Part shown: positions 3,378-59,553 of the stretch, in pieces
How positions within the stretch are numbered: position 1 is the stretch's first letter
Layout: every line of letters starts with the position of its first letter
Source of the DNA: Branchiostoma lanceolatum
Taxonomy: Eukaryota > Chordata > Leptocardii > Amphioxiformes > Branchiostomatidae
Direction of reading: 5' to 3'
Assembly: GCF_035083965.1 (NCBI RefSeq)
Contig: NC_089727.1
Span: 16,258,769 to 16,322,768 of the forward strand
Length of the DNA: 64,000 bases
Notes under the pieces: generated by a model
Database searches by the model: none
Told to the model about the DNA's origin: nothing
The model's input: only the letters and a program-made list of their open reading frames with translations
Program-made: the position numbers and the translations under genes

Positions 3378-6300
3378 CTACACCCTGAGTAACCGTCCAA
3401 GTGTTCTGTTTCTTCTCCCCAAAACTGGCCAGAATCTTCTCTTCAGTGCTGTTATCTGCAACACATAGAGAGGTAGGGGATTCTTTATATTAGATAGTCT
3501 TAAACAGTGTTTAGGCTTAGATATGTGACACTCAGATCTCCTAAACTGTCTGATGATAATAGAATATAAAGCAATATGACAAGATCCCAATGTGACTAGT
3601 ACTGGTGCAAAGCTGGTGAATTAGGTCAATAGGCAGCATAGTCTTGTTACTTTACTAAACCAGATTAGATACACAGTGCAAAGGCCATTTATGAATACAG
3701 CATACATGTAGCTGCACACACTCAATACTTTGCATATCATTCTCACTACCTGGTATGTATGTTTTATATTATGTGCAGATCTAGAATCATGGAAATCCTT
3801 ATCATGAAGGAGAGCTCACATTCCAAAACAACAGAAAGACAGCTTTCACAAAAGTTGGTATGGGTCAAAGGGCATACAAATGAAGAACTTGAAATCAAAA
3901 TGAGGCAGGAATTTACACTTACAGTAACCGTAAAAGGGACAGAAGCATCCGATAGCCCTATGATGTGTGAACAAAAACAGGAGCTTACAGAAAATTAGGA
4001 CAAAATACAAGAAAAACTACTATTCTAAAAAGATGTTAGGTAATATACTATAAATTCTACATCTAAAATATGAGTTTTGCTATCAGAAAAGAAGCTGTAT
4101 TAAGAGGTAGGATATGTACAAAAGTCAGGTGTTTGTAATCATACTATTTGAAAAGATGAGTGTGCAGAAGAGCCCCCTACCTGATTGGCACAGAACGACC
4201 ACAAGGAGAACAGGATGAGTGCGCCCATGGTGACGTGCGTCAGGAAGCGTAACCAGTCTCTGTACGCGCGCCACTCCCGTAGCTCGTCCATGTGCAAGAA
4301 CCTGTTCCTGTATTCCCGCGGCAGCTCAAACTGCGACGGCAGCGGAAACATGGCTTCGTAGAAGTCCACGATCACCGCCTTCACCAACTGTGCGTCCTTC
4401 TTCTTGTGCTCGATGTTGTCGTTCAAGCAGACGAACTTCTTTGGGTTCTTGCGAATGTCGTCCAGTTGAGCTATGACCTGCGAAACGTTGGTGCGGATCA
4501 TCTTGAAGGCCACCTGGTCCTCGCTGACGACCTCGTACTTAAACTTGTTCTTCTCCTTGTAGCTGTTGTTGAGCAGCTTGACCAGCCCATGGCAGTGCAG
4601 GACGAGGGACTTGGTGACCAGTGGCATTCTGGGTTCATAGTAGTGTTCCTGGTGGCAAAGGGCAGGCTTTTTAAAAACATGTTTGACATACACACAATCT
4701 ACTGAGTACTAAGAATAAATATATGTAAATCAAGAAAAATATGTACAGTAAAAGTTTGACGATCAAGTTTTGCATTGCATATCTTGACTAATGTCACAAA
4801 TTTTGCAATTTAGAAATGTGGAAAATCAAGCCTTATTTTTGCCAGTGTTACATTCTAAAAGACTATGATTATGAATGTAAAGATATTTAAAAAAAAACAT
4901 TGTACAAATAGGCATAGTACAAATGTATAGCGTGGGTGCCATTCAGGGCAGTGAGTGTAGGAGCCCCGGTAGTAATTGGATGGCACCCAGGCTAGGCAGT
5001 GTATACTGTTATACGAAAGGTTGTCATAATTCATGTAGCACAGCATTAACTGGTATGATGAAACCAAAATTGTTCTTTGCAGTAAACACAAAACAAAAAC
5101 TAGCAAGAAAAACACCTCTCCTGTCCAAATGGTCACATCCAACATGATGGCCCCTAAAACACCCCTCCCAATAAAATGGTCACATCCAACATGGCGGCCC
5201 CCCATCATTGCAAGCAAAAACAGAACAGGTTTTGCTATCGCAAACCTGTAACTATTTCGATTCTCTCAATGTCATGTCCTGACGCAATTTCCTTGTACAT
5301 AGGCCAATACATATCTCTTTTCTAAAAAGAAATCGATTGATCTCTGATGCAAACAATTGATGTTTCCTGTGTATCATGTAACATAGTTCCACATATGTAT
5401 TCTGTATTACTCTTATTGTATACCGTAGTGTTTAGACTTAAGTTTTGTAGAATTCAATAGCATTGTTTATAAGCAAAGACATATATATGTATTGACATTT
5501 TGTACTGCCTACAAACTTGCCATACATTGTACCTGTTACATTTGTTGTGCAATGAACTTTACATTAAAAAAAATGAAAGCTGTACCACCCCACCCTACAC
5601 ACCTGTGTTGGAGGAATGGTGGCAGGTTCTGTCAGGTTTTTGGGCAGAGATGCAGAACAGTTGATGAGGATCTGCTCCAGCTGTGTCAGGTGCTGTAGCG
5701 CCAGGGGGAGGTCGTTCAACCTAGCTGCCATGGTTCTCAACTCTCGGTCCGAAAGAATGCCTAGAAACAATCAGTTGAAAAAACTCAATTGGACATCAAT
5801 GTGTGGACAATTTCAACAGTTAATCAATGTTACTGATAGAAAATGTCAATAGTTAAAGCAGTTAGTAGTTTCAGTTTTCTTACAATTTTCTTGACATCTA
5901 ACTAACAGCATTTAGCCCATGTGGAGCATGATCATGCAATATAGCATCTACCAGGCTCCACAGGTCAATGGAAAAATAGGTCAAAAACTCCCTTAGCGAA
6001 ATCCTCTGGCATGTTATCCGTCTATTTGGTCAATTTCTACAATTTTTACGTCGACCTGTGGAGCTTGATAGAGGCTACATGCAATATACTTCACTGTCAT
6101 TTAATCAAACTTCTTAAGGTTACATATGTTGCAAGTGCCATGTGAGAATCCAACTCACCTGATTTGTCAGTGTCGAGTGAATCAAATATCTCTGTCACGT
6201 TCCTTGGCTCTTTCTCGCTCATCAGATAGTAGAAATACGAGAAAGCAAACTGCATGTCCTTCGAGTGCCTGATTTTGTGAGAGGAGGTTTCATCAAACTC

Positions 6301-9300
6301 TTCGGCAAGTTTCTCTTGTAGTTCCTTCATGATGGTAACATCAATCATGTGGGGCATGTGTGCCGGCACCTTCCTTGATTGGAAACCGTACGCTTTGTTG
6401 AAAATGCGATTACTGTGACGCAACGAATCCGCGAATGTATCGGCTAGCTGACGTGACCTATGTGGTGGAGATTTGTATAGTTTTTCTGTCAGGAGTTTTT
6501 CTTTCTCCTTCATCAAGTTGCGGAAAACAGCTTGTTTCTCCCATGGAAGGAAGCTTCCTAATAATGAGTCGGCCTCTACTGCTTCGTTACCACTAAGGTC
6601 TTTGGCCAAAAGTCTTCTCATTGGAGGGTTGTCCTCTTCAAATTCATTCTTGTCCTCCTTACTTTTCTCTTTCTTCAAGCTGATTGAGATATTTTCTCCC
6701 TTACTTTTCTCTAAAGCTTCAAGATTTGGATGTGTTACCATGTCTACAATATCTCCACCTTCCATGTTTTGATCCATATTGATGACTCCTTCTTCATTCA
6801 ATGGCCTGTTCACTTTGTCCTGTCTTAAAAGGATTTTTTTCTCATGTGCATCCTGTTTTTCTCCTTCATCTTGCTTGACTTTTAAAATTTTGCCTTCGTT
6901 TTTCCTCAAAACCTTTGAATCCAGCTGCTGACTGACCAAATTTTTCAGTCGTTTTGTTCCAACTGTGACCTTGGAAGCCTCTCTACCATGATCCTTTGCA
7001 TCTATCCCAGGATCCTTTGCTGGATTCCCATCATCCCTCGGGGGTTGACTTCTCCTTGTGTTTGTCCTCCTTGCTGGGCTGTGTTTAGCAGCTGGTGAGG
7101 TTTTCTTCTTCTGAAGTTCTTTTATCGCTTCTGCTCTCAGCACTTCAGGTGGAAAGTTCTTCCACAGCGCTGCAGCCAGCCATTTGTACCCTTTTTCTGA
7201 GAAAACAGTAGAAATGGGAAAGAAATTGAAGCACTCTGAAAACGTCTGATTCTTTCATTTCCATTTGTACAGAAAATGCCTACATTAATTTTTCTTGATA
7301 AGAAATTACAAAAAAAAAGCTCAATGCTATCATATACATGTATCAGTGCTCATAATACTGAACCAAACTGGTTGGAGTTAGTTTACCTGTTAGTTCTCCT
7401 GCATCAAGTTGACCCTCTAACTCCTTCAGGCCTGCGCTCAGATCCTCCGGTATGAAGCTCATGTTGTTAACATCAGGCAAAGACTCTGGTATCGACACTG
7501 GTCGAGTGTCTCTCTTCACCTATTGGTGGAAGGCAAGCAACTAATAATTAGGGATGACCTTTTCAAATCATTACTGTCCATAAGACCAACCTCATTGACA
7601 AGACCTTTCTGTCTACAGAATGAAGCAAACAAGAATACATGAAGGAAAATCAAGTCAACCTGATTTTGATTTTGACCACATTGATTAAGCCTCTTTTATA
7701 CAGGGGGCTCTTTTAGCACATATATGTCATGTATATATACACATTATGTATTGTGATGTAAATATATGCACAACTTCGACCTTGTAACATGATGATGGAC
7801 ACTTGAAATACCACTTTGTGTCCATATTTCTATGCACTACGTTTGTTCTCTTTTTCTGGCTATTAGAGTAAGAACTAAGATGAATAGACTACCAAATGGT
7901 GACTATTTTGGACAAAAGTATGGCTTGAAAAAGAATGTTTTGTTCTCAAACGTATTCTTACCTTTGGGTGCATCTTTTCTTCAGGAACCTCCTCAAAGGA
8001 GATAAGAATGTCTTCCTCGTGTGTGTCTTCTGCCTCGCTGGCGGCGGTGGCGCTAACGTTCCCCTCCGCTCCCGTCTTGTTCAACAACGACGCTTCCTTG
8101 GGCCTCTCTTTGGTGTCCACGGTCAAGTTGAAGGCCATGTGGAATTTGTCGTTAGTCTCCTTGTTCTTGCCTGTTTAGAGGAAGTGAGGAAAATTGTTAT
8201 CATAGAACGCAAGCAACTTTCTTAATGAGCACAAATCATACAACTGTATCAAGGCCCCACCAATTTAATTTCTTGGTTAACAGAACTGATTTTTATTTTC
8301 AAAAAAAAAAAATTTTAGAATAAAAAAAAATCATGAAAACAGAAGGCTTAAATTTTTTTTTTGGAAAATAAAAATCTGTTAACCAAGAAATTAAATTGGT
8401 GTGGCCTAATCTTCATGAGGATTCACCATACATGTAAATGAAAAGCTATTCAAACTCAAAGATGAAAAGACTACATCAAATGCTATAATAACATTCAGAA
8501 CCTAATACATGTATACTGAAATTCACTTTTTATCTTCCCGCTGGCAAAATTTCACGGTGTAAGGAAAATTGACATTTTCACTGAACTTTAACTTCACGGT
8601 GGCGGCAAGTGATTTACAGAACGGATGTGTGAAGGAATCATAAATAATTACAAAAGGTTTTTCACGTTGATGATAAGTTCACGTTACAGAGGTGACCATG
8701 AAAACAGTGAATATAAAGCTACAGTGAAAGAAACAAGAATTACAGTATATTTACATAACTAAGACATGCACTTTGTGTTGACAAAAAAAAACACTGCCAA
8801 TTCCGATTGACAGTATGAACAGACTTTTTACGGACGTTTTAGGACAAGAGACAATCTTATGATGGATGTTAAGTAATGCTGTTGGTAAATTCAGACAGAG
8901 ATGTACATGTAACTTACCCGTGAGGTTGAAGTGTAGAACGGAGGCATTCTTGTTGGGAAAGAGAACGATGTTCAGAGTCTTGAACTTCTGTGCAACAGTC
9001 GCTGCCCTGATCACGCCGACGTCATCATACTTTCCCTCAGTCACAGATATACCTTAAGTTCAACAACACGCTTCATATATATGGGTTGCACATACAGGAT
9101 GACTGTATATTCATGGATTTGGGATTTCTCACTTTCTCGCTTTACAGCGCAGGGAAATGCAATGCAGAAGAGGTGAGGCATTAATGATCTGATTGGTAAA
9201 AACTTGCCAGCATGACAAGGGTTATAACACTATGTTCCCTTTTCTTTCTTTATTTACAACACTTTCAACATATGTTAGGGATACATGTATCACTTATAGC

Positions 9301-12300
9301 AGCAGTGAGAGATTATATTTTGCAACTAATCTTAGCTTTAGCAGCAATTTTGACCATCATGAATTGATTTTCTAGTGATAAATTGTTCAAAATAAAGAGC
9401 ACATTCACATGCAGACACTGACTTTTAAATGCTCCAAATTAATTTCTTCAGTTACTTAATTAATGTATATAGGAGGACTGTAGAAGGCTGAAGGTTGCAT
9501 TTCAAATCCCCCTTACCTTCATGGAACACAGCTGACAGGTTAAAGTACACCAGGTGTTCTCCTGCCTTCAGGTGATACAGGTGAACGTCTGGCTGCAGGT
9601 CGATCTTTGTCAGCTTGTCAAAGTTGGTCGTCCCACAGTCACCAGCATCAAAACCACATTGCAATGTATTGCAGGCCTGAAGGAGTGAAAAGTAGCAGCA
9701 AATTATCATTTTCTTGTTAGAGCGATTGCTAGCTCTTCTTTCTGTCGTTTTCCTTTTCCTTTTTAGCGAAGCTTCAGGAGCGAGCTTAATAGCATATTTT
9801 AGGCCCGTTTCACAAGAATTCCCAGAATTTTACAGGAATCCATCTGTGGACCCGCCTGTCACTCTATACCTTGTTAGTCAGGTCTGGCATTCCGGCACGC
9901 AGGTCTATGACAGATAACCTACTTACGTGGTGTCCGATTTCGTACTATTGGGAGCGTGTCAGGTTACACAGAATCTAGTGTTCTTGGTTCGAAAAGGGTT
10001 TTCAACCCACCTCAATTGATCTATTATCAAAAGAACTTGTTGAACACCATGCCCCCCTCCAAATATACCCCTGTGGACACCAAATCTTCAGACTGGCTTG
10101 GCAGACGCCTTACTGACTTAACAAATATTATCATGGCAGAACTAATGAGTGCTACGTTGGTACTTTCTTACAGTGAAGTAAGATCAACGAAGACACCTTC
10201 GCTATGGCAATAATTTTTAATTGCCACACTTATTATCCTTTCATCCTTCATTTCTGACATTCTTTTCCTTTGTCTTTCCATCCTTTTTTTCTTTTCTGCT
10301 GCCTTTGTCACAGTGATTGCTCAGGATCTATTACAGCAAAAATATTACTGTAACTTCCGAAAATAATATCATCAGGTTGGTAGAACATAAGATATTTGGA
10401 GTTTCTTTTAGCACAACCAGGTAATCTCACCTGCTGACGTTTCGGTGTCTGTCAGACACCTTCTTCAAAGCATTTATTTACTGTAACTCTATTTACTTGT
10501 GTAGTTGTTCTATTTTGTAGTAACGGGGAAAAGAAAGGTTTTGTGACGTCTTAACTTTGCAGTTGAAACAATTCTGTACATGTTGTACAGCAGTCAGGAA
10601 AGGATGAATTTGTGATAGAGAGGTCACTGCAGAAATAAAACCACTGCAAAAATTTTAAGATTTACATTATAATTGTAGACACGATCCCTCTCCCATCCCC
10701 AGTACTTACCTGGTCACAGTATCTGTCAGCCAGCCAGTTGTTGGCACAGCCAGGGTTACAGTACATCATGCCGGCACCAGAGTCCTGCCCACCCCCATGC
10801 ATTTGGTTTGGTCCAGCACCGGCTCCTCCAAGGCAGTCACCACCATCCCACTCACATTCTAAATCAAAACAGACACATTGTTAAACCCAAAGGTGGGAGT
10901 ACGCCGCTCCCGGGATTAGAACCCACCCCAAACCAATCCGCACGGCTTGGGAAATCAACGCGCTAACCACTAGGCTAAAAGGTCCGGACCAGTTAGACTG
11001 GTCAGTTAGTGGAGGGTGATCCCCACTGTTACACTACTCCCCCTTTTCTTTTCAGACTCGTCCTGAGTCTCCGAGTACGACATGCCCTGTGTGATCTGAT
11101 CGTTACTCACAGGGCCGGCATGGGAACCACTGTAAAAACCCAAAGGGGTGAGTACGCTGCTCCCCGGATTAGAATATGGTCTAGTGGTTAGGATTTGGCG
11201 CTCTCACCGCCAAGGCCCGGGTTCGATCCCCGGTGTGGGAACCACTGTAAAACCCAAAGAGGCGAGTACGCCACTCCCGGGATTAGAACCAGCACCAATC
11301 CCGATCCGCACGGCTTGGGAAATCAATGCGCTAACCACTAGGCTAAAAGGTCTGGACCAGTTAGACTGGTCAGTTAGTGGAGGTTGATCCCCACTGTTAC
11401 ACTATGAATAATTTTCTATCCAGTATGAACACTTTGGGGATCGACATAAAATTTAAAGTTATGCAACAAGCTCAGTCAAAACATGTGCAAGGAAAGAAAA
11501 TATTGATTTCAGGGCAAAAAATAAGCAAACAAACAAGCAAAAAACAACAAAAGGCCATACCTGAATTGTTACAGGCCTTGTCACAATAGTTGTCCCTAAT
11601 CCAAGAGGAGGGGCAGCCATCTGCACAGTTGGGGACTGGCCAGGCAAGGTAGACCTGGGGAGGGGGGCATGACCTCTAAATTAACAATGAATGTTCCCCA
11701 CATGTCAATGATGAAAACCTGATGTAGCACAGTGTACTTACAAAGCTAAAAATTGTCTTCTTTTTATTTGCATATCAATTCATAGTTTGTGGTTAAAACC
11801 TGCTGTTCAACAATCTTGCTCAGAGTCACTGACGAAAAGTAGTGGATGCTACTTGAAACCGTTTCCAAAATCAAATCCAGTTGCTTCAGTAACTGTTATT
11901 TGGTGTACTTACAACGAACACACAACATGAATGTCTGTAGCCTGGAATCCAAACCTATTATAGCTCCCGAAATTGAGAGAGACTTGGGAGCTATAATAGA
12001 TTTGGATTCCAGGCTAGAATGACTGATAGCACATGACATTCTTTTCTATGCATGAGAAGTCTTCCCAAAAAAATTACTGTTTTCAAGGGAGATTCAATCT
12101 GCAGTCAGGAACACAGAAAAGCACACCCATGCGTACAGATGTAGAGAATTCCAGCAAAAGAAAAATTGAGTTATACAGTATTGTCTATGCAACCGGTGCA
12201 ATGGCCTAGTTGGTAGAGTGTTCGCCTTGTACACGGTAGGTCGTGAGTTCGAACCCCGGCCGGGTCATACAAAAGACATTAAAAATGGCACATACTGCTT

Positions 12301-15300
12301 TCTCTGCTTAGCACTCAGCATTTGGGAAAGAGTATGGTAGTTTAACACACATCTCTACCAGTAGATCAGCCCCCTGCTGTAGTGACTTGCACAAATGTGC
12401 TATAGAAATGGAGATGGGCGCCACCCCTATGCGTCTTTTCAGGATGCCCGGGTCACTTTAACTTTAACTTTAGTATTGAGAACATTTTTTTCTACTTCCC
12501 TACCTTCTGCCCTTGTGAGTGTGTGTAGAAGTCATCAGGCCACACCTCTGCACCAAACATCACGTCATCATTCAGGTAGATAAACTTGTTGGACAGACCC
12601 GGGATTCTGTGCAGGTGGGCCTCGATGGAAGGGGAACTGTAGGAAGGGAGGTGACTGGCATTGGGAAAAAGGTCACTGTGGGTCACGATGGTCAGTCTGG
12701 GGTTGTCCAGGTTCAGCCAGGACGGGATTTGACCGTTGGTGACGATGTAAACATGGCGAACCCACGGCGCGTACCTCTCGATGGAGCGTAAGGAGTACCT
12801 CAACTCTTCATTGTCTTCAAACCTGTCAAATAAATTGGGATGCGAGATTAGTGATGTCAAAGATTCTAGATATACAATGTATGTTACAGTATTAGACGTT
12901 ACTACTGTAATTCGTGATTTGTTAACTGTAACTTAATTTTAGCTGATTTAACGGTCACTAGTCAACAGCTAAAATTTCATAATCACTAATATTTGATCAC
13001 AAATACTTGAGACAGTAATGTTTGTTCCCATCATTAAAATTAAGTGCTGTGACCTACTCCACTTTCCCCAAACCGTTATATTTTCCTGCCGCTATATTGA
13101 TTTACAGTAATTATTTCCTATTTTCAAAGCACTGTTTACATTCCATTAGACTTAAACTTTGTATCAAATGTACAGCAAGTACTGTACCCAAAGAAAATGC
13201 TGGTGGCAAGAAAAATATCTTCTTATTTTATCTCAGCACATAGAAGACAAAACTAATGAAATTGTTGAGTACCTGCTTGGTGCGATGTCTTCATGGAAGG
13301 ACAAATCATCTGTGAGATCCCAGGCCAGACTGGCAGCTGTCAATCTTACTGTGTCATTTCCGATCGTCACATTAGTGACATCGCCATCCTGGAGGAAATC
13401 ACAGAATATATTCAAAGTTATAATAACTAGCAGATCAAGAACTCCAAAGTAATGATAATGGAAACAACTATTGTAAATAAAAAAACACAGAACAATGTAT
13501 CATATTAGCAGATAAGATTTGTCAGCTTACTGTCTCATAGACGATAAGAATGGTATTGCATTTCTATGCTCTTATTAACATTTCCAGGTAACACAGGTAC
13601 TGAATCACAAAACTTGAATAGGACTAAAGTGTTACCCAGTTGGCAAAGTTAATCAAATTAGCTGTTAAACAGCTTAAGACTTCATTCCCACTGAATAATG
13701 TTACCTTAAGAATAAGGTCCATATCGTTAAAGTCTGGTACATCCATGACTGCCACCCTCTTTTCCGGGTACACTTCAACAGTAGAGACTTTCTCCCTGAA
13801 CTTGTCCTCTAGCATAGACTTGACCTCTAGGTCGCCCTGCCGTGGGAGGTTGGTGACCATGACTGTGTCCTTCAGTAGCACGCTGTGAGGCACCGTCCAA
13901 TCACTGGTCAGGTAGCCTTGTTGTAGCGAGATGTTCACCCCATTTATCTCTATTGTTTCCTTCAGGACTATGTCGACTATGTAAAGGGAAAACGGTAAAG
14001 TAATGGTGAAAAATATACATATTCATGAGAAAATTGTTTGATAATTCATATCAAATGTGGTAATAATCTGCTCCACTCCTAGGCTGTTACCAAAGTAGGT
14101 TTTGAAGTTTTGACAATAAGAATTGAACAGTATGAAATACATATATAATTGATTTGTAATTTGTTCAAGAATCATCAAATAGTCCAGCAATTTTGCAACT
14201 TCCATGTGACAATATTTTTCCCAAAAGCTAAGCTACAGTATTACTATGATACCTGTTTTGATAGAGACTTCATTCAATAAGAAAATTTTTTATCATCTTC
14301 TACAGAAAAAGAGGCTAATTTTCCTTTTCATAAACCTTTAGTTTAATCAAGTTTGAGTGAAACATATTACCTTCGACTTGAGATGAGAACTTAATGAGTG
14401 TGATGTTGATGGGCGGATCTCCCAGTGCCGTATGGTGCTCCACACTCCTGGCCAGCAGGAAGACTGGGAACTCCGCACGGACGTCCGGTAACTCCATCGT
14501 TGATGGAAGAGGTGGTACCAACACCACTGCCAGGACCGATACACAGTCTTTTAACTTACACCTGGTTCTACTGCTGTCATCTGTGGTCTGGTTAGTCTCG
14601 GGGCCTGTCTTAGTTCTGTAAAAGAAAAAGAAAGGATTCGTGAAAAGGTTCAAAGAAACAGCTGTTTCCAAAGAAACAAAAGACAATATAACACTTACCA
14701 AAAAGGTTACACAAAAAAAGTCATGTTGGATACCCTGTTACAAATAAAATATACTACAATCAATAATGGTGCATTATTTGGACAATAGAATAACAAGTAG
14801 GTTGGAACTTTGCCCCCAGGCTACATGTAAGTTCTATTCCTGTTTAGCCATATGGCCGCTTTTCAACAGAGTTCTATATAGTGGTGTATCAGTTTGAATA
14901 CACAATCATGTAAATCTGGTGGGAAAACATTCATTCTTTACTTTACAATAAAGGAAGACAGCAACTTTATTTGTCAGAGCTTTCTTCTCTTTTATATAAC
15001 AATTTACAAATGCAGGTACATTGTAAGGTGTAGTAATCATGTAGTAAGGAACATATAAGACAATGTGACCTACTTGTTTATTTCTAACTCCATGTCCATT
15101 TTGAGCCTTCGTAGACCCTCCAGTAATTTGGGGTCTGTCCCGTTCACCCATGTATACACAACGTCGATGGGTACGGGCAAGCATAGACGATCCTGGAACG
15201 ACTTGCTCGCAATGTTGTCATGATAGGCGCTAAACATGGCTGCATATTGGTCTTTACTCCACTCTAGCATTACCTGGGGAAAGTGGAATATGATATTGAA

Positions 15301-42858: not shown

Positions 42859-43290
42859 TCACCTCTTCCTGAAGAAATCCGTAACTGTCGTCTGTTTTAC
42901 AGTCTTAGAACTTGACCGCACAAGTCTTTCCTCGCACCACTTCTCCTCCAAGACGTTCTCAGTCTCCAAGATGTTGTCCAAGACGTTCGTGTGCCCCTCT
43001 CTCACCACGAATTTCTTCAGTCTTCTCAGACACTGCAGCGCCTCTGGAAGGTTTGTTATGTCGTCTGACTTCTGTTCCTCCGGCGCTGCTTCTCTGTCGA
43101 ACTCGTCTTCTAGAGATCTCTTTCTCTTCCGCTGTCTGTTGTTTCTCTTGAGCACAGCATTGCGTGGGTGATTGCTGAAGATGGGTTCAGTGTTGCCGCC
43201 GAAACTGTCGTTAAGATCCAGCGCCTCTAGCCCCTGTTGTATCGTGATGAACCGAACTCTGCGCGGTTTGGAGTCGACGTTTGGCGGCAT
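42859..43290 (-). CDS. Small basic protein with C-terminal PIP box, copy A
   Basis: Intronless frame of 143 aa. I start at the MPP codon because homology to copy B begins there, although the frame is open 19 codons further upstream. Visible features: N-terminal RRVRFITIQQGLEALDL, a basic nuclear-localisation-like RKRKRSLE (about 55-62), a helical segment LPEALQCLRRLKKFVVREGH, and the last residues KQTTVTDFFRKR, a canonical PCNA-interacting (PIP) box (QxxVxxFF with the TD of Cdt2-type degrons). No CDK-inhibitor or transposase catalytic domain is present. The helix plus PIP tail resembles the C-terminus of pogo/Tigger transposases, suggesting a nuclear PCNA-binding protein of possible transposon origin (inference). 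Function unknown. Confidence 0.75.
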   Translation of the reverse strand: MPPNVDSKPRRVRFITIQQGLEALDLNDSFGGNTEPIFSNHPRNAVLKRNNRQRKRKRSLEDEFDREAAPEEQKSDDITNLPEALQCLRRLKKFVVREGHTNVLDNILETENVLEEKWCEERLVRSSSKTVKQTTVTDFFRKR

Positions 43291-43659
43291 CGTCACTGTC
43301 TGTCTGCTAGTCCCAGAGTCAGCGAGAGAAATGACTGTCAGAAACACGGGCGAAGATGGCTTTATACCCTGGTGTTAGTTGTCTGTGCTTTGCGTCAGTT
43401 GTCGCGTTACACAGCATTGTTTGTTGTCCAGAAAACGAACAATGCATATGAAGCCATTGTCTTGAATCTCTTGATTGTATATAGGAGGACTTGAAGCCCT
43501 ACATAGAGCCATTAGACAAGTTTCAAACCTGCCAAACTAGAAAATCTGGAACTGCTATTTAGACTGTGCAGAGCCTTCTAAAACAACAATGACCTGATAT
43601 CTTCCCATAATACAGACTGATGCTGACTGACGGGTCGACAAAGATTTTTCTTGTTTTCG

Positions 43660-45096: not shown

Positions 45097-45570
45097 TCAG
45101 TTCATCTTCACAATCTGGCATAACTGTCTCTTCCTGAAGAAGTCTGTAACTGTCGTCTGTTTTACAGTCTTAGAACTTGACCGCACAAGTCTTTCCTCGC
45201 ACCACTTCTCCTCCAAGACGTTCTCCAGCTCCAAGACGGTGCCCAAGACGTCCGTGTGTCCCTCCCTCGCCACGAATGTTTTCAGTCTTTTCAGACACTG
45301 TAGCGCATCTGGAATGGTCTTGATATCTTTTGGGCTGTTTTCTCTCGTGTTCAGTGATGCTTGCATGTCAAAATCGCCTTCCAGCGATCTTTTTCTTTTC
45401 CGCTGCATGCATATGTTGTTGTTCTCCACCTCCAATATTTTCCCAGAGTTCAAGCAAGGTCCAGTACCGGTGTCGTTGCAAAATCTATCGTCCAGTCCTA
45501 GCGCTTCTAACCCCCGCTGTAGCGTGCTAAATGGGGTCCTCCGTTGTTTTGGGTCGATTTTTGGTGGCAT
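45097..45570 (-). CDS. Small basic protein with C-terminal PIP box, copy B
   Basis: Intronless frame of 157 aa starting at the MPP codon shared with copy A; an open extension of 27 codons upstream is probably not used. It has the same layout: RRTPFSTLQRGLEALGL, RKRKRSLE, IPDALQCLKRLKTFVAREGH and ENVLEEKWCEERL...KQTTVTDFFRKR. Eight extra residues (QLCQIVKMN minus one shared position) follow the PIP box. The N-terminal and middle parts differ clearly from copy A while the last 32 shared residues are identical. Same strand as copy A, about 1.8 kb upstream, so this is a tandem duplicate. Function unknown; PCNA binding is inferred from the motif. Confidence 0.75.
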   Translation of the reverse strand: MPPKIDPKQRRTPFSTLQRGLEALGLDDRFCNDTGTGPCLNSGKILEVENNNICMQRKRKRSLEGDFDMQASLNTRENSPKDIKTIPDALQCLKRLKTFVAREGHTDVLGTVLELENVLEEKWCEERLVRSSSKTVKQTTVTDFFRKRQLCQIVKMN

Positions 45571-46614
45571 CGTTACAATATAGTCCCAGCTACAATAGAA
45601 GCGACTGACTATGGAGGTACACAACTGCGTTCTGATAGCTTTGCGGGTCACAACACTGTCTACACACCAAACCAGCTGTCGTTATGCCCCCGGGATTATT
45701 TACACAGTTGACTATATTTAAAAATGGGCCTTCTCAAAACAAGGAAAACCAGAAAGACAACAAAATGGCGGCTATACACAACGGAATAGTCACAAAGTGA
45801 TGCAAATGTTTCTGGTGCTTTAATCGTTCTGTTTACTTGTACATGTAATTACATTGTCTGGTAATTTGTTTCAAGATTAACAAAATGTATACATATGAAA
45901 GCAGGGAATCTGACATAGCTCTACAGAAAAAATGAGGTTTGAAAGAAAACCTTCCATATAACGTTTGTCAGATCTGACCTTAATCATACATAGTTAAGCA
46001 TTTACAAAGCTGGTTCATTGTTAGTTGCACCAAGGAGGTTATATAACCTCCTTGGTTGCACAGAGTCATAGAGAATATGTTTTTATCTCATTCTATCAAA
46101 TGACCACATGACAGGTTAAAGTTGAAAACAGAAATATATCATAGGCACTCACTTAAAATGTGTAGAAATGGGCTAAAGCTACAAGACATCATTTTCAAAT
46201 ATTGACATTTGTCCAGCATATTGGTACTTACCATTGGCACTAACAATACGGCCTAACATGTCGATCACAGCTGCCTATATATCTTTACAATAGCTTAACT
46301 AGTCTTGTACTCAAGTTGTAGTGTTATTGTGTTAAGAATGGTTTGTCCTTAAAACCTTTGATGTTCAAAGTAGCAACAGAAACATTTCCACTTTCTGTTC
46401 TTATATCATAGGTACAGTTTATATTCATATCCCACTGTTATAATAAGGTGGTCAACATCTGAAATATTTTGCTCATCTGTATACAAAATAGTCATACAAA
46501 GAGAAAAAAAGTGTCAAGTTACTTCAATACATTTTATGTAACCCTTTGTTGAAGACTCTACATTTGTGTACAACAAAATACAATGCATCTATTTCTCAAC
46601 TGTCCCAAATGGAA
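45571..46614. other. Spacer between PIP copy B and NUP62
   Basis: It holds the 5' flank of copy B and the 3' UTR of NUP62 (both minus). A 28-bp palindrome at 46029-46056 is listed separately. No other gene is visible. Confidence 0.5.
46029..46056. repeat. Perfect 28-bp palindrome
   Basis: ACCAAGGAGGTTAT followed directly by its exact inverse. The AACCTCCTTGG arm recurs at 53288-53335 in a looser hairpin. It could be a MITE remnant. Confidence 0.7.
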
Positions 46615-49600
46615 TCATTCGAATGCCAGTCTGAAGCTGTGTTCCTGCTCCTTCCTCTGCACCTCACACTGTTTGGCGACTTCATCTACTTTTCTCTGTA
46701 ACACCGCTAGAAAGTAGCACAGAAAACACATTTTAGATGATATTTCTGAGACATGCTACAAAATATTACTAACATTTCTACTGTGATGGTTTGGAGTGGA
46801 TTTACTCAAGTGAAACAGTACATGTATTTTAGTTACAAAGATTGTAGGGAGACAGAAATACATGAGATTGACGCAAACTTCGACATACATGTACAGTTGA
46901 CTTTTTAAGATTAAAACAACAATTTATGAATGGCAAACTGAAATCTCTAAGGTTCTAATACAGATTTCTTGTTTACATGTACAGATATGAGTAATTTTAT
47001 TCATCTGTGACACTTTCACGACCTAATGATGATGATTTATGACTGAATCATAACACCCATACCTGCATTCTGGTCCAACCACTGTAAGGAGTCCATGTGG
47101 GCATTCAGGATTCTGGCAATTTGGTGAAGCTAGTGGGAAGGAACATGGAAGTTACTGATTTATATCCTGGATTCCTGGGTACTACCTGGTAGTATTTCTG
47201 AAACAATCATCATTTTAAAGAGGTTATGGAAATCTCACTTCTTCTTAATGTAAAGTGATGAATAAATGAATGAAAAAATATGTTAAATACTACACAAAAC
47301 CAAAGGGAGAATTACTTCCCAGTTCCCCAGTATTTCCTGCTAGGAAGTGTAGAGATGAGACAACACTTACAGGGTCACTGCTGGTGTTGGGAGCTCCTGA
47401 TTGGTTGAGATGTTCTATGATGTCCTTGATGTCCTGCATCATCCTCTTGAGCTGTGCATCTGTGTTCTCAGCTAGCTGGTACCTGTGTATGTACAACAGT
47501 ACAGGATTTAATCTCATCATAGAACATAGCTGAATTTTAGACTATGCTCTGTTAGTCATCATCAGCACTGGTTGGTTTGTAAGAAGAATGACTGCAAAAG
47601 CTATGAATGAACCTTCATTCTGGCTTTTGCAGGTAAGTTTATAAGGAATAAGTCATAAATACAAGGGGAATTTGGATTCAGGAAGTATTACTGACCAACC
47701 TCCCTAGCTAGCAGAATGATTTCTAACTGCAGCAAACTGTCAAACTTGCAAGTATCTACATCCTATGGTGGACAAAATACTGTATTGTGGAGGTTTCTGT
47801 TCTCCAGCTGTTTGATGTCTGTGTCCATCTGAATCAGGAAACCAGTATAACTATCCTTCTGCAAAGCTAACAGACCATAAAGTAACCTAAGATGGGGAAA
47901 TACTGACAAGTTTACAGATGGAACCATTGTGGAGATTTTTGTTCTACAGCTGTTTGATGTGTGCTTCTGAATATGATTCGGTGAACAAACTATCCTTCTG
48001 TGCAGTTAAACAAACCAAGGTGGGGAAAAACTGACAAGACAAGTCCCAGATGAAACCGTGACACATAAGTTCGGTGTTAGAATATTGCAAAAGTTCTCAC
48101 GTGTGTTCCCTCTCCAGGTCTGCATGCTGCTGGTAGATGGAGGGAGCCTGGCTCTTCACGGCGTCCTCCAGTGGCACCAACATGTCCTCCAGCTCCCGCT
48201 GCTGCGCCAGGATGAAGTCCAGCTCATGGTCCAGCCGCCCCTGGTCCAGCTTCACACGCTGGACAGACTCATTCAGGGCTACGATCTGGAACACATAGAG
48301 ACATTACAAACACGCTGGACCGACTCATTTAGGGCTACGATCTGGAACACATAGTGACATTACAAACACGCTGGACCGACTCATTCAGGGCTACGATCTG
48401 GAACACATAGTGACATTACAAACACGCTGAACAGACTCATTCAGGGCTACGATCTGGAACACATAGAGACATTACAAACACGCTGGACCGACTCATTCAG
48501 GGCTACGATCTGGAACACATAGAGACATTACAAACACGCTGAACCGACTCATTCAGGGCGACAATCTGGAACACATAGTGACATTACAAACACGCTGAAC
48601 CGACTCATTCAGGGCTACGATCTGGAACACATAGTGACATTACAAACACGCTGAACCGACTCATTCAGGGCTACGATCTGGAACACATAGAGACATTACA
48701 AACACGCTGAACCGACTCATTCAGGGCTACGATCTGGAACACATAGTGACATTACAAACACGCTGAACCGACTCATTCAGGGCTACGATCTGGAACACAT
48801 AGAGACATTACAAACACGCTGAACCGACTCATTCAGGGCTACGATCTGGAACACATAGTGACATTACAAACACGCTGAACCGACTCATTCAGGGCGACAA
48901 TCTGGAACAGGTTGCGGTAGTATTACTAACATCAAAGATTCTACCGTTAGAGATTCTACCAGAGTCTCTGTTGACAAGAGGTCGCAATCAGTATCTGTGT
49001 CAACCAATACTCTGATTGTGTCTCTACCAATAGAATTGCCAATTCTGCCAAATTGCAATGTCTACTCTAACACATATATCCTCAATGGTGCTGTTTTAGC
49101 TACAGGAAAGAAGAAAAGGTGAATGGTTTCTAATTGTCCTTTACTGAGAAAAATCACATGGATATGCACTGAGCACAAACTTATCTAAAGTTATTTTGTT
49201 GCTGCAATGTCATACCTCAAATTCACCTTTTGGCTGTCAAGTAGTGTTTCTTAGAATTTAGATTTGAATGTAGAATAAGTTTTCAATCTCAATGCATTGA
49301 CAAAAAGAAAGGAAAAAAATATCTACTTCTACAGTTAAAAGTATATACATAAGTATCTATTATGAGGCCCTTGCCAAAATACCATGACACACGCAAGACC
49401 ATCCCAAAATAATATGCAGTTGTAAATTTATGGTATGATAGATCTACACAATGTTATGTGAGGGGCTTTCCTGACCTTCTCTCCGTTCTCGATGACCTGT
49501 CTGTCCCAGGCGTTGACCTGCGTGGCCTGGTGCAGGAAGGTTCGCTCCGTCTCCTCCAGCTGGACGCTCCACTTGTTGATCTTCTCTTCCAGCTGGGTGA

Positions 49601-55178: not shown

Positions 55179-58100
55179 TCATACCTCAGTCTGTACTTTA
55201 CTCCTACTATCCAGTTTTGAGGTTCTAATCGGTTTAACTACAATGTTCGGAAGATTCTGGTGACTGCCTTTAAGCAACCCGCTGGTTTCTAATTCTTCAT
55301 TAACAATATGTGGCTTGCCGGGTGTAGAGGCGATATCAATGGGTTCTTCAGACACGGAGGTAGCCACGGATAACTGACTAGCTGAGGGACTGGATGGCTC
55401 AAACCCACTGTCTGTTGTACTATTGGAAGCGAGGGACAGGGGTCGCTGTTGCAACTGACTCTCGATAAGTGTAGCTAAATCAGAACGTTCAATTCTGATA
55501 AAGATCTGAGCGAGCTCTTGCAAGATTTCGCTGCTAGTTTGTCGTCTTTTTTGTCCGCACAGCTCCATGTACATTAGGAGGTAATGTGTGGGGCTGTCGA
55601 CCCTCTGATCTAACAAATCCCTCTGGGAACTGTCAAATCCGAGTTCAGAGGCAAACGACCTAAAGTCATTACCGGTGGGGACTTTTACGTCAAGACGCGA
55701 CATTAGCTTTTCTCGTAGGTCCTGTGGAATAGCATTTGGTTGGTATGTGGAGTTACCCCCCGTTAGACAGTAGAGGAATGATGCAGGGGAGGGAGATTGC
55801 TCTGCTGAAAGGAACCTTTCTATTGCCGAAGTGGGATAGGAAGTGCCGTCCTGCTCATTAGACATGAGACTAAGTGGAAAATCAAACTCTGCGACGGAGG
55901 AACTAGATTTCTGCTTAGCGACCACATGGACAGAGGCACAGGTGTCCTGAGAGACAGCACGAAGGTGAAAGGACACGTACTGTCCTTGAGGATTGCTGTT
56001 CTGCTGAACAGACTTGTAATCAATCAGCTGTTTCGGCTGTGTTGGCATTTCCCACCCCTCTGTATTCAAGCTCATTTTGACCTTGACATCCTTGTCATTA
56101 CTCAGAAATGTTATTTCTTTGGGTGGACATGTTAGGTGGAAGCCATTATTGCGTTCCTGATCTTTTACAGCACTGAGTGATTCAGGAGTGTCGTTAACGC
56201 AAAACGCGTGGATCTCGAAAAACCTGTTTTTGGTATCAAACAACTTTGAAAAAATCATGATTTTGACTTTCTTGGATTTTGCTTTTAATCCAAAGAGAGT
56301 GAAATGGGAAGTGTACACAAGGCACTCATCGCCTTTGACCATGTAGTTAACCCCGCAGCTACCGTTCAAACTGGCTTCTTTCCACTTTGGAGCTTCATCA
56401 AGAGAAGTCTCACTTACTAAAAGTGTGACGTCAGCTGACGTCACGCCCCCACAGTGTGGAAAACTCAGCAAGGCAGGGTTCTGAAAGGACACCCCATGCG
56501 GACTGCACGATATTACAGGACTGACCAGCGATTCACCCTTTGCAAGCTCGGGCAGGTACTTGGGACTGTTAAGAACAGCTAGCTGTATGTCAGTGTCTCT
56601 TTCAACTCTATCGATGCAAAGGTAAGTACTTAACGCTGGAAGCCTAAGGCAACCACCATTCACACCAACAGTGGCCTTTGCAACGTCTACCCAAAGGTTG
56701 ATCTTGTTAAACATATCGACTTCTGCAGGGTTACCATATATGTCAACAGCCCTTTCCATTGTATAGAAATGGGGCGGCGACTTAACAATGTCTGTAGGAC
56801 TCACAGAATGTGCTAAGGGTGGGTTCCTACTATCCCAAGAGCTACTGTCCTGAGACCACGACAGATCGCAGCCTGAGTCTGTACTTAACTTCCCGTGATA
56901 TCCAAGAGTAGGGATGATATCCGTCGATACTTCATCTGTGATAGACGATCCGCCTTCACATCCATCTCCATAGATGCCACCGTCCTCACATGAACGTTCA
57001 CAATCCGATTCAGTAGTTCTGTTCGCGTTCCTACGGCAGAGATAGAAATACATGAACGTGAGCTTGAAACCATCTTTATCTACCAATAACACGTGGTTCT
57101 ACCACATGCGTCCATGCGTGCTAGTCAGACACGTTGTACTTGGGTTTTGATCGAAAGGTATTTGTCTCATTATGATCTAAGGAAGTAGCTCAATTCAATG
57201 CTAACACTAATCATGAGCTATAGGATGTGCATGGTGATGTTTCTGATCGTTAACCTAAAGAACAATATCGTGGCAACGTGAGCGTAGATCTAGAGCAGGC
57301 AAAGGAACGGAAAAGTGCTTACCTCGCTTTCCGTATGCGAAAAGTTGCAAGACCCATCACAGCAAAGAACAACGCGGCAGCGCTCGCTGAAACACCGATG
57401 AAGATCGGTAGGTGCGGTGACGTGATGCGCGCAAGGGCCACTTCTGGTGTGTTGGGATGGACGGCTGTTGTCGTCACTTTTGGGGTGCTGTGGGGGACGT
57501 TTGCTGGCCAAACACTTACATCATGGACGCAAGTCCCCAAGTATGCGAAGAAGCTGAAAGATAGTGGAGAGACAAAAATGTCATAATGAAATTCTTTAGA
57601 ATTACTTGGAACTTAAACACTAAGTTTCGCCTTGAATGAGAAATGAATCGAATGTTTTATTAAAGCTGTACTAAGTAGTACGAGGATTGTTGCCACATAT
57701 TTCAAAACAATGTTATTAGAAGTCTGCACGCAAGGTTTTATTCGGTACATTATCATTTGGGTGTTCTGACACTGTAAATTAAATCAAGTACTACTACAAC
57801 TACTACAGATTCTGAATCCCATCCGCCTATACGTTTTGAGCAAGGCTTACCCTGGTAGGCAGTCGCCGCATTCTGTCTGGGAGGTAGGTGTACACGGCTT
57901 CCACACCGTCCGGTACACGGTGGTGCAGTTTAGACATGGCAGGCACTCCGTCTGGAACCCATGTCCACACTGCCTACTCCTGAAGGATCCTTCCGGACAG
58001 TCCTGTACTCAGAATCCATGGTATATATTTGATACTTTCGCTGTTTAGAGCATTGCAATCTATGTTACACATACTCAAGTCCTTCAAACGAAGGTTAATT

Positions 58101-58499
58101 ATACTCTGTCATTATCCGTAATGTCCATTTTTTGTGAGTGTTATATTGAAAACATAAGACACTTACCTGTTCAGGAGGACACTTAACGCATTCGAGGTTA
58201 TGGTTCAGGTATCTCTTTGGCGACTTGCATGTTGAGCGCGAGGATACCTGTGAAACATACGAAGTTATGATTAGCTAAAACTAACGTTATAATCTTTAAT
58301 GTAGTCATCGCTGTATTTTAAGCACTACTTTATTGCCTTCTAAGGAAGACAACATATACTTTTAGTTCGTTACATTGCTATGGTGAATAAGCAGAGGAGC
58401 AGGATAAAATGGATAATATTTGATCAATGTACTCACGTGACATATTGAAACCAAGACAAGGACTAAAATGAGTCGCCGATGTCCTTGTAGCCACAGCAT
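55179..58499 (-). CDS. TNFR-type receptor with ZU5-UPA-death-domain tail
   Basis: Five coding exons: 58437-58499, 58167-58247, 57851-58002, 57323-57553 and 55179-57030; phases close to 792 aa. Residues 1-21 are a signal peptide (MLWLQGH...LVLVLVSICH). Residues 22-102 form a TNFR cysteine-rich region (LECVKCPPEQDCPEG, GHGFQTECLPCLNCTTVYRT, TQTECGDCLPG-like). A Thr/Pro stalk and TM (about 147-170, LPIFIGVSASAAALFFAVMG) follow. The cytosolic part has a Ser/Asp-rich linker, ZU5 (about 297-423, SPVISCSPHGVSFQNPALLS), UPA (about 428-555, HAFCVNDTPESL) and a death domain (about 610-703, GNDFRSFASELGFDSSQRDL), then an 85-residue tail. The last three domains are those of UNC5 netrin receptors, but the ectodomain is TNFR-type, without Ig or TSP repeats. 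Likely a single-pass death/NF-kB-type signalling receptor (inference). The TGA follows GAG-GTATGA, which could also act as a donor. A 5' UTR exon likely ends at 59554. Confidence 0.9.
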
Positions 58500-58793: not shown

Positions 58794-58945
58794 CTTTCTG
58801 GCGAAAAGAGGGGATGGCAGAGGTTTAACCCCTCTTTTCACCATAAGGAGATTTTATAATGTCTTTCTGGCGAAAAGAGGGGATGCAATAGGTCTTATCC
58901 CCTCTTTTCACCATAAGGAGATTTCGTAGTGTCTTTCTGGCGAAA
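58794..58945. repeat. Tandem 69-bp units with palindromic core
   Basis: Units begin at 58794, 58863 and 58933 with CTTTCTGGCGAAAAGAGGGG; the third is truncated. Each complete unit contains GAAAAGAGGGGAT and its inverse CCCCTCTTTTC, so the RNA or single strand would form a hairpin. They lie in the intron between the 5' UTR exon and first coding exon of the TNFR-ZU5-DD gene. Confidence 0.75.
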
Positions 58946-59553
58946 ATATGGGATAAAACCATCACCATACCACTATCCCGACAATTTTGTTTATCCCGGC
59001 TATAATGCTAGTATACGATTCAGTACTAAATAATAGGGATAAAATAATCAAGTCTAATCTATACCACCAGCTGCATGAGCTTCAAATATACGGTGTTTGA
59101 TTGCTTTATAATCATTAAATGTGTTCTGGTGTATACTTGTAATCATTTCCGGCATTGTACTTCCGTGTCATGTTGGATCTGGGCCACACCTGAGGCTGAG
59201 CACGAGGACAGCTCGTGATCAAAAGTTTCGCAACCCTCCGTTTGTCCCGAAATAAGTGCACACTTCTAAGTTAATCATTGTTTTTTTCTCCATTTAGCAT
59301 ATCTGTAGGTCGGACATGAAGCGACATACGCGCTTTTCTGCCAAGGCAAAGTAACGTTATGCACTTAGTTCGCAAATTGGCAATATCTTTCAATCTGTAA
59401 TTTTTGCCCCCCCCCCCTTAAGAAAGATTGACAATCCTTTATTTGAAAGTGAAAGAATGATGAGAAAGTGTTGACTAGATTATATGTTTTCAGAATTTCC
59501 CTAGTATACGCTAAGAATCTTATTATTACTTGTATACACTACCATATACTCAC

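What the first reader, a model, noticed from the sequence alone, without database searches (positions are those of the whole stretch)
55179..58499. A TNF-receptor ectodomain spliced to a UNC5-type ZU5-UPA-death-domain tail
One continuous five-exon model joins a signal peptide, TNFR cysteine-rich exons (CPxG, CxPCxxC, CGDCLPG patterns), a TM segment and a full ZU5-UPA-DD supramodule. In UNC5 and PIDD-type proteins this supramodule is held closed and opened by ligand or cleavage; TNFRs normally carry a bare death domain or TRAF motif. The combination would couple TNF-family sensing to the UNC5 autoinhibition switch. I know no described receptor with this layout, but cannot search.
Basis: partly seen in the sequence, partly recalled or inferred. 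Interest (0 to 1): 0.88.

Follow-up and report, generated by a model that had tools for sequence, protein, structure and literature searches.

The report
Lancelet EDAR/TROY-like receptor with UNC5-type tail
A lancelet gene filed as a netrin receptor appears to pair the outside of a TNF-family (EDAR/TROY-type) receptor with the inside of a UNC5 receptor, a conserved combination for which I found no description, and it carries a motif near a place where related proteins cut themselves.

Summary
Three other lancelet entries share the architecture at 66-71% identity (one lacks its N-terminus). The inside is a ZU5-UPA-death-domain module closest to UNC5B among solved structures (E 1e-26). The outside shows no Ig or TSP1 domain; it looks like a 12-cysteine TNF-receptor ectodomain, nearer to EDAR/TROY/XEDAR than to p75NTR or TNFR1 (TROY and XEDAR letters recalled). 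Pfam's TNFR model matches only below its cut-off, but EDAR letters score the same. New here: the longest invariant run in the five-way tail alignment is ECLVYTSHFT (10 residues; next 4), whose HF-T lies at the ZU5/UPA border where PIDD (HF/S) and CARD8/NLRP1 (SF/S) cut themselves. A self-cleaving tail is plausible but untested, and the register against UNC5B is ambiguous. Open-access searches showed no paper describing this receptor (many seen only as listings). Verdict: real, misleadingly named, new variant of known kinds; spread beyond lancelets undetermined.

The parts
58437..58499 (-). Exon 1: start codon and signal-peptide-like stretch (aa 1-21)
   Evidence: GT donor, phase 0, hydrophobic segment; identical to P0001
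58167..58247 (-). Exon 2: start of ectodomain (aa 22-48, Cys28, Cys41, Cys44)
57851..58002 (-). Exon 3: main cysteine-rich exon (aa 49-99) with the CGDCLPG motif
   Evidence: (TNFR_c6 best family when the ectodomain is scanned alone)
57323..57553 (-). Exon 4: last ectodomain cysteine (Cys107), stalk, transmembrane segment
57346..57411 (-). Transmembrane segment, about aa 147-168
   Evidence: 19-residue Kyte-Doolittle means up to 2.21, followed by RIRKAR; a like peak in P0002, P0003 and P0004
55179..57030 (-). Exon 5: whole cytoplasmic tail (aa 176/177-792) and stop
56415..56678 (-). ZU5 domain, aa 294-381
   Evidence: PF00791 53.3 bits, cut-off 21
56298..56306 (-). His418-Phe419-Thr420, candidate self-cleavage site, end of the invariant run ECLVYTSHFT (aa 411-420)
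   Evidence: invariant in 5 of 5; longest invariant run; position compared with PIDD/CARD8
55935..56276 (-). UPA domain, aa 428-541
   Evidence: PF17217 26.3 bits against cut-off 27; 37.7 bits in ortholog P0002
55458..55682 (-). Death domain, aa 626-700
   Evidence: 15.6 bits, below the cut-off; DD profile hits UNC5B (1wmg) at 4.4e-8
55182..55193 (-). C-terminal QTEV (ETEV in 3 orthologs, ETAV in P0005), fits a class I PDZ ligand
   Evidence: the PDZ reading is recalled knowledge

Best explanation
It is a single-pass lancelet receptor made by domain shuffling: EDAR/TROY/XEDAR-type TNFR cysteine-rich domains outside, and a UNC5-type ZU5-UPA-death-domain module inside. Shown by sequence: one in-frame gene model, conserved architecture, homology of the tail to UNC5B; well supported but weaker: TNFR homology of the ectodomain. 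Inferred: an EDA-like TNF-family ligand clusters the receptor; the ZU5 domain holds the UPA and death domain closed until clustering opens the module; the exposed death domains then recruit death-domain adaptors (NF-kB, JNK or caspase output), and the C-terminal TEV tail binds a PDZ scaffold. The confidence given is for the receptor's make-up; for the inferred switch I would say about 0.5.
For: The spliced model is identical to the public B. lanceolatum protein; orthologs P0002, P0003 and P0004 are 71, 66 and 71% identical over aligned columns (69, 63 and 67% by BLAST). 12 of 12 ectodomain cysteines (Cys28 to Cys107) are invariant in the 3 of 4 proteins that have the full ectodomain. TNFR_c6 is the top Pfam family for the ectodomain alone in 3 of 3 (E 0.0039, 0.21, 0.072; next family BRINP at 0.8-5.8), and EDAR letters score 18.4 bits against 18.0 here. 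Smith-Waterman scores against shuffles that keep the cysteines in place: EDAR z 4.0-6.4, TROY 7.2-9.0, XEDAR 6.7-7.2; p75NTR 0.3-3.6, TNFR1 1.3-3.9. Tail profile against PDB: UNC5B 1.1e-26 over ZU5, UPA and DD, then ZO-1 9e-12 and ankyrins. UNC5B autoinhibition and FIIND closure come from passages of PMC3210808 and PMC8081665.
Against: TNFR_c6 and Death stay below Pfam cut-offs in this protein. The ectodomain profile finds no significant solved TNFR: EDAR is third of 6 at E 1.7, behind EL5 (0.05) and an NF-kB inhibitor (0.19). A piece of P0002's ectodomain matched PRDM9 zinc fingers at 6.6e-6 and 6.3e-5 through summed short stretches, none passing on its own, and ELR1 at 0.57. Both structure predictions failed (pLDDT 28 and 43), and Foldseek on the ectodomain gave nothing significant (best E 0.58, from a VLDLR complex; 12 of 26 matches were chains of TNFR-family complexes, all at E 2.4 or worse). 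A non-TNFR control (TROP2 fragment, itself picked by a search) reached z 5.9-9.3, and ELR1 pieces 1.2-5.2. The z-scores are not sharply subfamily-specific: TNFR1 against XEDAR gives 6.7. No transcript, ligand or signalling evidence was available.
Confidence: 0.8

Rival explanations
1. Same receptor, but the tail cuts itself at His418-Phe419/Thr420 as PIDD and NLRP1/CARD8 do. The receptor would then be a two-piece complex, a TNFR-TM-ZU5 anchor holding a non-covalently bound UPA-DD fragment that ligand or degradation of the anchor could release.
For: HFT is invariant in 5 of 5, including P0005, a paralog 34% identical over 54% of the query with no TM peak. It ends the longest invariant run (10, next 4; 10 of 10,000 permutations over the tail, 89 of 10,000 within the ZU5-UPA core). 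PIDD cuts HF/S right after each ZU5 and CARD8/NLRP1 cut SF/S; threonine is an accepted nucleophile in such acyl shifts (PMC3210808, passages). The adhesion-GPCR motif is H-X-S/T (start of the abstract of PMC13062082 in a listing). Anchoring on Cys412 = UNC5B Cys670 (numbering worked out here from the printed chain and the residues named in the paper) puts Phe419 on Leu677, the residue equated with CARD8 Phe296.
Against: Other alignments shift the register: phmmer puts Phe419 on Tyr680 and the profile puts it on Phe682 of UNC5B's own VFT, so FT may be a shared structural element. Thr instead of Ser. The His that NLRP1/CARD8 use 27 residues upstream has no counterpart at that distance (residue 393 is Lys). 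A Pfam scan of the border region gave no PIDD peptidase match in 4 of 4 proteins given. Permutation ignores natural clustering of conservation, and 4 of the 5 sequences are orthologs.
Confidence: 0.35
2. It is an ordinary UNC5 netrin receptor, as the database name says.
For: Tail is UNC5-like; database names of P0001 and P0004.
Against: No Ig or TSP1 domain at E up to 1; the ectodomain is a 12-cysteine TNFR type.
Confidence: 0.03
3. Two neighbouring genes, or two transcripts, joined by gene prediction: a small TNFR and a soluble ZU5-UPA-DD protein.
For: P0005, which lacks the TNFR part and any TM peak, shows that a soluble ZU5-UPA-DD protein exists. P0001-P0004 may come from similar prediction pipelines. 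Read past the exon 4 donor, the frame ends at once (AGG TAA, 57321-57319), so an intron-4-retaining mRNA would give a receptor without a tail; the exon 5 frame runs 68 bases into the intron with an ATG of its own.
Against: All phases and splice sites agree; introns are only 164-297 bp; in-frame conservation crosses the exon 4/5 joint in 3 of 3 orthologs.
Confidence: 0.06
4. It is a p75NTR-type neurotrophin receptor that gained ZU5-UPA.
For: DD profile hits p75NTR (0.0045-0.008) after UNC5B and level with ankyrin-3.
Against: Ectodomain z to p75NTR is only 0.3-3.6 against 4.0-9.0 for the EDAR group; p75NTR has four CRDs in vertebrates (PMC4812194 passages).
Confidence: 0.07

Closest known systems
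UNC5 netrin receptors (UNC5B, PDB 3g5b)
   Same: ZU5-UPA-DD tail behind a TM (the TM of UNC5 is recalled); best solved match (E 1.1e-26)
   Different: No Ig or TSP1 ectodomain here; His418 of the HFT motif has no His partner in UNC5B in any of the three alignments
EDAR / XEDAR / TROY subfamily of TNF receptors
   Same: Ectodomain cysteine layout and CGDCLPGF motif; scores above cysteine-fixed shuffles
   Different: About 19 residues shorter in the middle of the alignment; tail is ZU5-UPA-DD; TROY and XEDAR letters were recalled
PIDD1
   Same: ZU5-UPA-DD tail; HF/S at the ZU5 end versus HF-T here (PMC3210808 passages)
   Different: PIDD is LRR plus two ZU5 domains (PMC9573974 table passage); this is a membrane receptor with one ZU5 and Thr
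NLRP1 / CARD8 FIIND
   Same: ZU5-UPA pair with a cleavage site between the two (passages)
   Different: SF/S not HF-T; CARD not DD; cytosolic
UNC5CL (ZUD)
   Same: TM plus ZU5-UPA-DD and self-cleavage, all recalled; [quoted passage not shown]
   Different: Recalled to have no TNFR ectodomain
Amphioxus TNFR-caspase hybrids (PMC2575513)
   Same: Lancelet TNFR ectodomain shuffled onto an unusual death-pathway tail, cDNA-supported (passages)
   Different: Effector is a caspase; ZU5 and UNC5 occur 0 times in its main text

Membership tests
TNF receptor superfamily | Cysteine-rich repeats with conserved cysteine layout | tested here: met
   12 of 12 Cys invariant in the 3 full proteins; TNFR_c6 top family in 3 of 3 ectodomains, below cut-off; EDAR-group z 4.0-9.0
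TNF receptor superfamily | TNFR_c6 above Pfam's curated cut-off | tested here: not met
   18.0 bits at best against 29.4; EDAR letters from 7x9g also miss it (18.4)
TNF receptor superfamily | TNFR fold in a structure model | tested here: inconclusive
   pLDDT 43; Foldseek nothing at E <= 0.001
TNF receptor superfamily | Binds a TNF-family ligand | not testable with these tools
   needs binding assay
UNC5 netrin receptor | ZU5-UPA-DD tail | tested here: met
UNC5 netrin receptor | Ig plus TSP1 ectodomain (feature recalled) | tested here: not met
   no such family at E up to 1
PIDD | LRR and two ZU5 domains | tested here: not met
   one ZU5, no LRR
Self-cleaving ZU5-UPA proteins | [HS]F-S (or T) at the ZU5/UPA border | tested here: inconclusive
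   HFT invariant 5 of 5; Thr not Ser; register to UNC5B differs by alignment
Self-cleaving ZU5-UPA proteins | Actual cleavage | not testable with these tools
   needs expression and N-terminal sequencing

The most novel reading that the evidence does not exclude
A death receptor of the EDAR/TROY type whose tail cuts itself at HF/T, so that ligand binding or degradation of the membrane anchor frees a UPA-death-domain fragment: an NLRP1/PIDD-style releasable warhead built into a TNF receptor.
Probability: 0.3. Interest if true: 0.8.

Novelty: new variant of a known kind. Interest (0 to 1): 0.56.

Why it matters
It suggests that the UNC5-type switch and the EDAR-type ectodomain, separate in the vertebrate receptors named here, can be joined in one conserved chordate receptor. 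It gives a natural test of whether ZU5-UPA closure is a portable switch. If the HF-T site cuts, it would extend the release logic of NLRP1/CARD8/PIDD to a cell-surface TNF receptor. It also corrects a misleading database name.

Tried and rejected
Whole-genome search: no genome is held for this window. Homolog searches returned only lancelet proteins (5, 3 and 4 hits); they depend on shared 5-residue words and did not list UNC5 proteins of other animals either, so they say nothing about other phyla. Full-length AlphaFold2 on 4 sequences failed (pLDDT 28); the ectodomain on 3 sequences was poor (43) and its Foldseek list was not significant. A phage-collection search of exon 3 found nothing and was not informative. 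tblastn of the five proteins against the window: nothing outside the gene below E 1.6. The motif scan was run by mistake on all five proteins in one file; only positions up to 792 refer to this protein, and I base nothing on it. Papers: passages of PMC8195603, PMC2575513, PMC3210808, PMC4979521, PMC2772990, PMC4812194, PMC13255311, PMC11585957, PMC8081665, PMC12909245 and PMC9573974 described no such receptor; no paper was read whole.

Full report
What is there. On the minus strand, five exons (58499-58437, 58247-58167, 58002-57851, 57553-57323, 57030-55179) join through four GT-AG introns of 164-297 bp with matching phases to give 792 aa. The stop-to-stop frame of 639 codons that holds exon 5 is far longer than the 126-230 codons found as maxima in 30 first-order simulations of the window. 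The protein is identical over its whole length to P0001, which the source names netrin receptor UNC5A-like of Branchiostoma lanceolatum. The window is therefore most likely lancelet DNA.

Relatives. One search lists five proteins: P0001 itself; P0002 (B. floridae x B. japonicum), P0003 (B. floridae x B. belcheri) and P0004 (B. floridae C3Y3E3, lacking the N-terminal part of the ectodomain), 71, 66 and 71% identical over aligned columns; and P0005 (B. belcheri, 1030 aa), 34% identical over 54% of the query, with ZU5-UPA-Death but no TNFR part in the alignment and no hydropathy peak for a TM. Conservation runs in frame across the exon 4/5 joint in the three orthologs. These entries are gene predictions and may share a pipeline, so they are not independent proof of the transcript. 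Read past the exon 4 donor, the frame stops at once (AGG TAA), and the exon 5 frame has an ATG just inside the intron, so separate or tail-less transcripts remain possible until cDNA is seen.

Inside. ZU5 is certain (53.3 bits, cut-off 21). UPA is 26.3 (cut-off 27) here and 37.7 in P0002. Death is 15.6 (cut-off 22.6) here, 18.1-21.9 in the three orthologs and 45.4 in P0005. A profile of the tail finds UNC5B at 1.1e-26 across all three domains, then ZO-1 (9e-12) and ankyrins. The death domain alone finds UNC5B (4.4e-8), then ankyrin-3 and p75NTR (0.004-0.008).

Outside. No Ig or TSP1 domain is found at E up to 1. All 12 ectodomain cysteines are invariant in the three proteins with a full ectodomain. 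Scanned alone, the ectodomain has TNFR_c6 as top family in 3 of 3 (18.0, 12.4 and 13.9 bits; cut-off 29.4). EDAR letters from 7x9g reach only 18.4 bits, so missing the cut-off does not exclude a TNFR; recalled TROY and XEDAR reach 46.7 and 50.8. Against shuffles that hold cysteines in place, the three lancelet ectodomains score z 4.0-6.4 to EDAR, 7.2-9.0 to TROY and 6.7-7.2 to XEDAR, but 0.3-3.6 to p75NTR and 1.3-3.9 to TNFR1. Results against: the ectodomain profile finds EDAR, the only TNFR of 6 matches, at E 1.7, behind EL5 (0.05) and an NF-kB inhibitor (0.19); a piece of P0002 finds PRDM9 zinc fingers at 6.6e-6 through summed weak stretches; a TROP2 fragment that a search had picked scores z 5.9-9.3; TNFR1 against XEDAR scores z 6.7, so the scores do not sort subfamilies sharply; the structure models are poor and Foldseek is not significant. 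A paper says that Troy, EDAR and XEDAR form one subfamily and that Troy and p75NTR sequences occur in invertebrate deuterostomes (PMC2772990, passage), which fits.

The ZU5/UPA border. In the five-way tail alignment the longest invariant run is ECLVYTSHFT (aa 411-420), 10 residues, the next longest being 4; shuffling columns gives a run of 10 or more in 10 of 10,000 cases over the tail and 89 of 10,000 in the ZU5-UPA core. Conservation clusters naturally and four of the five sequences are orthologs, so these fractions are optimistic. PIDD cuts itself at HF/S right after each ZU5, and CARD8 and NLRP1 at SF/S; CARD8 Phe296 was equated with UNC5B Leu677 (PMC3210808, passages). Anchored on Cys412 = UNC5B Cys670 (numbering worked out here), Phe419 falls on Leu677 and Phe422 on Tyr680. 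But phmmer puts Phe419 on Tyr680 and the profile on Phe682, where UNC5B itself has VFT. The upstream His that NLRP1 and CARD8 need (PMC8081665, passages) has no counterpart at the same distance (Lys393). Pfam gave no PIDD peptidase match for the border region in 4 of 4 proteins given. I put self-cleavage at about one in three.

How it most likely works. Inferred, not shown: an EDA-like TNF ligand clusters the receptor, ZU5 restrains UPA and DD as in UNC5B and the FIIND, and clustering or loss of ZU5 frees the death domain for adaptor recruitment. The conserved C-terminal [EQ]T[EA]V in 5 of 5 fits a class I PDZ ligand (recalled).

Novelty. TNFR plus ZU5 plus death domain plus amphioxus gives 3 papers, and TNFR plus ZU5 plus domain architecture plus receptor the same 3; I saw passages of all three. 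p75NTR plus ZU5 plus death domain gives 2, seen as listings only. XEDAR plus EDAR plus amphioxus gives 1, passages seen. At least three of amphioxus, ZU5, death domain, UNC5 gives 45 papers, 25 listed, of which I saw passages of five (PMC8195603, PMC3210808, PMC11585957, PMC12909245, PMC13255311). Searches gave 8 and 7 papers; I saw passages of PMC2575513, PMC12909245 and PMC4979521 among them. None of the passages describes this receptor; the rest are unseen beyond listings, supplements were not open, and the library is open-access only. Known lancelet shuffling is close in spirit: TNFR-caspase with cDNA support (PMC2575513) and a RIPK-like kinase with ZU5 (PMC9573974). So this is a new variant of known kinds, with a testable and bolder switch hypothesis.

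Noticed in passing
window 58794-58954: About 2.3 copies of a 70-bp unit that is also inverted-repeat rich (CTTTCTGGCGAAAAGAGGGG... / CCCCTCTTTTCACC), about 300 bp upstream of the start codon; possibly a small mobile-element remnant.
   Followed up: partly
window 48254-48909: 11.7 copies of a 56-bp tandem repeat at 96% matches.
   Followed up: no
window 4139-14022, minus strand: Exons of a GlcNAc-1-phosphotransferase (GNPTAB-like) gene: Stealth CR2, CR3, CR4 and the regulatory domain.
   Followed up: partly
window 42859-43374 and 45097-45681, minus strand: Two similar ORFs that share KTVKQTTVTDFFRKR at or near their ends, no Pfam match at E 0.01; look like a duplicate pair; QTTVTDFF resembles a PIP-box (recalled).
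   Followed up: no
window 57319-57321, minus strand: In-frame TAA directly after the exon 4 donor (AGG TAA): intron retention would give a receptor without the ZU5-UPA-DD tail.
   Followed up: partly
B. belcheri protein P0005: Paralogous ZU5-UPA-DD protein without a TNFR part or TM peak, with the same YTSHFT motif and ending in ETAV.
   Followed up: partly
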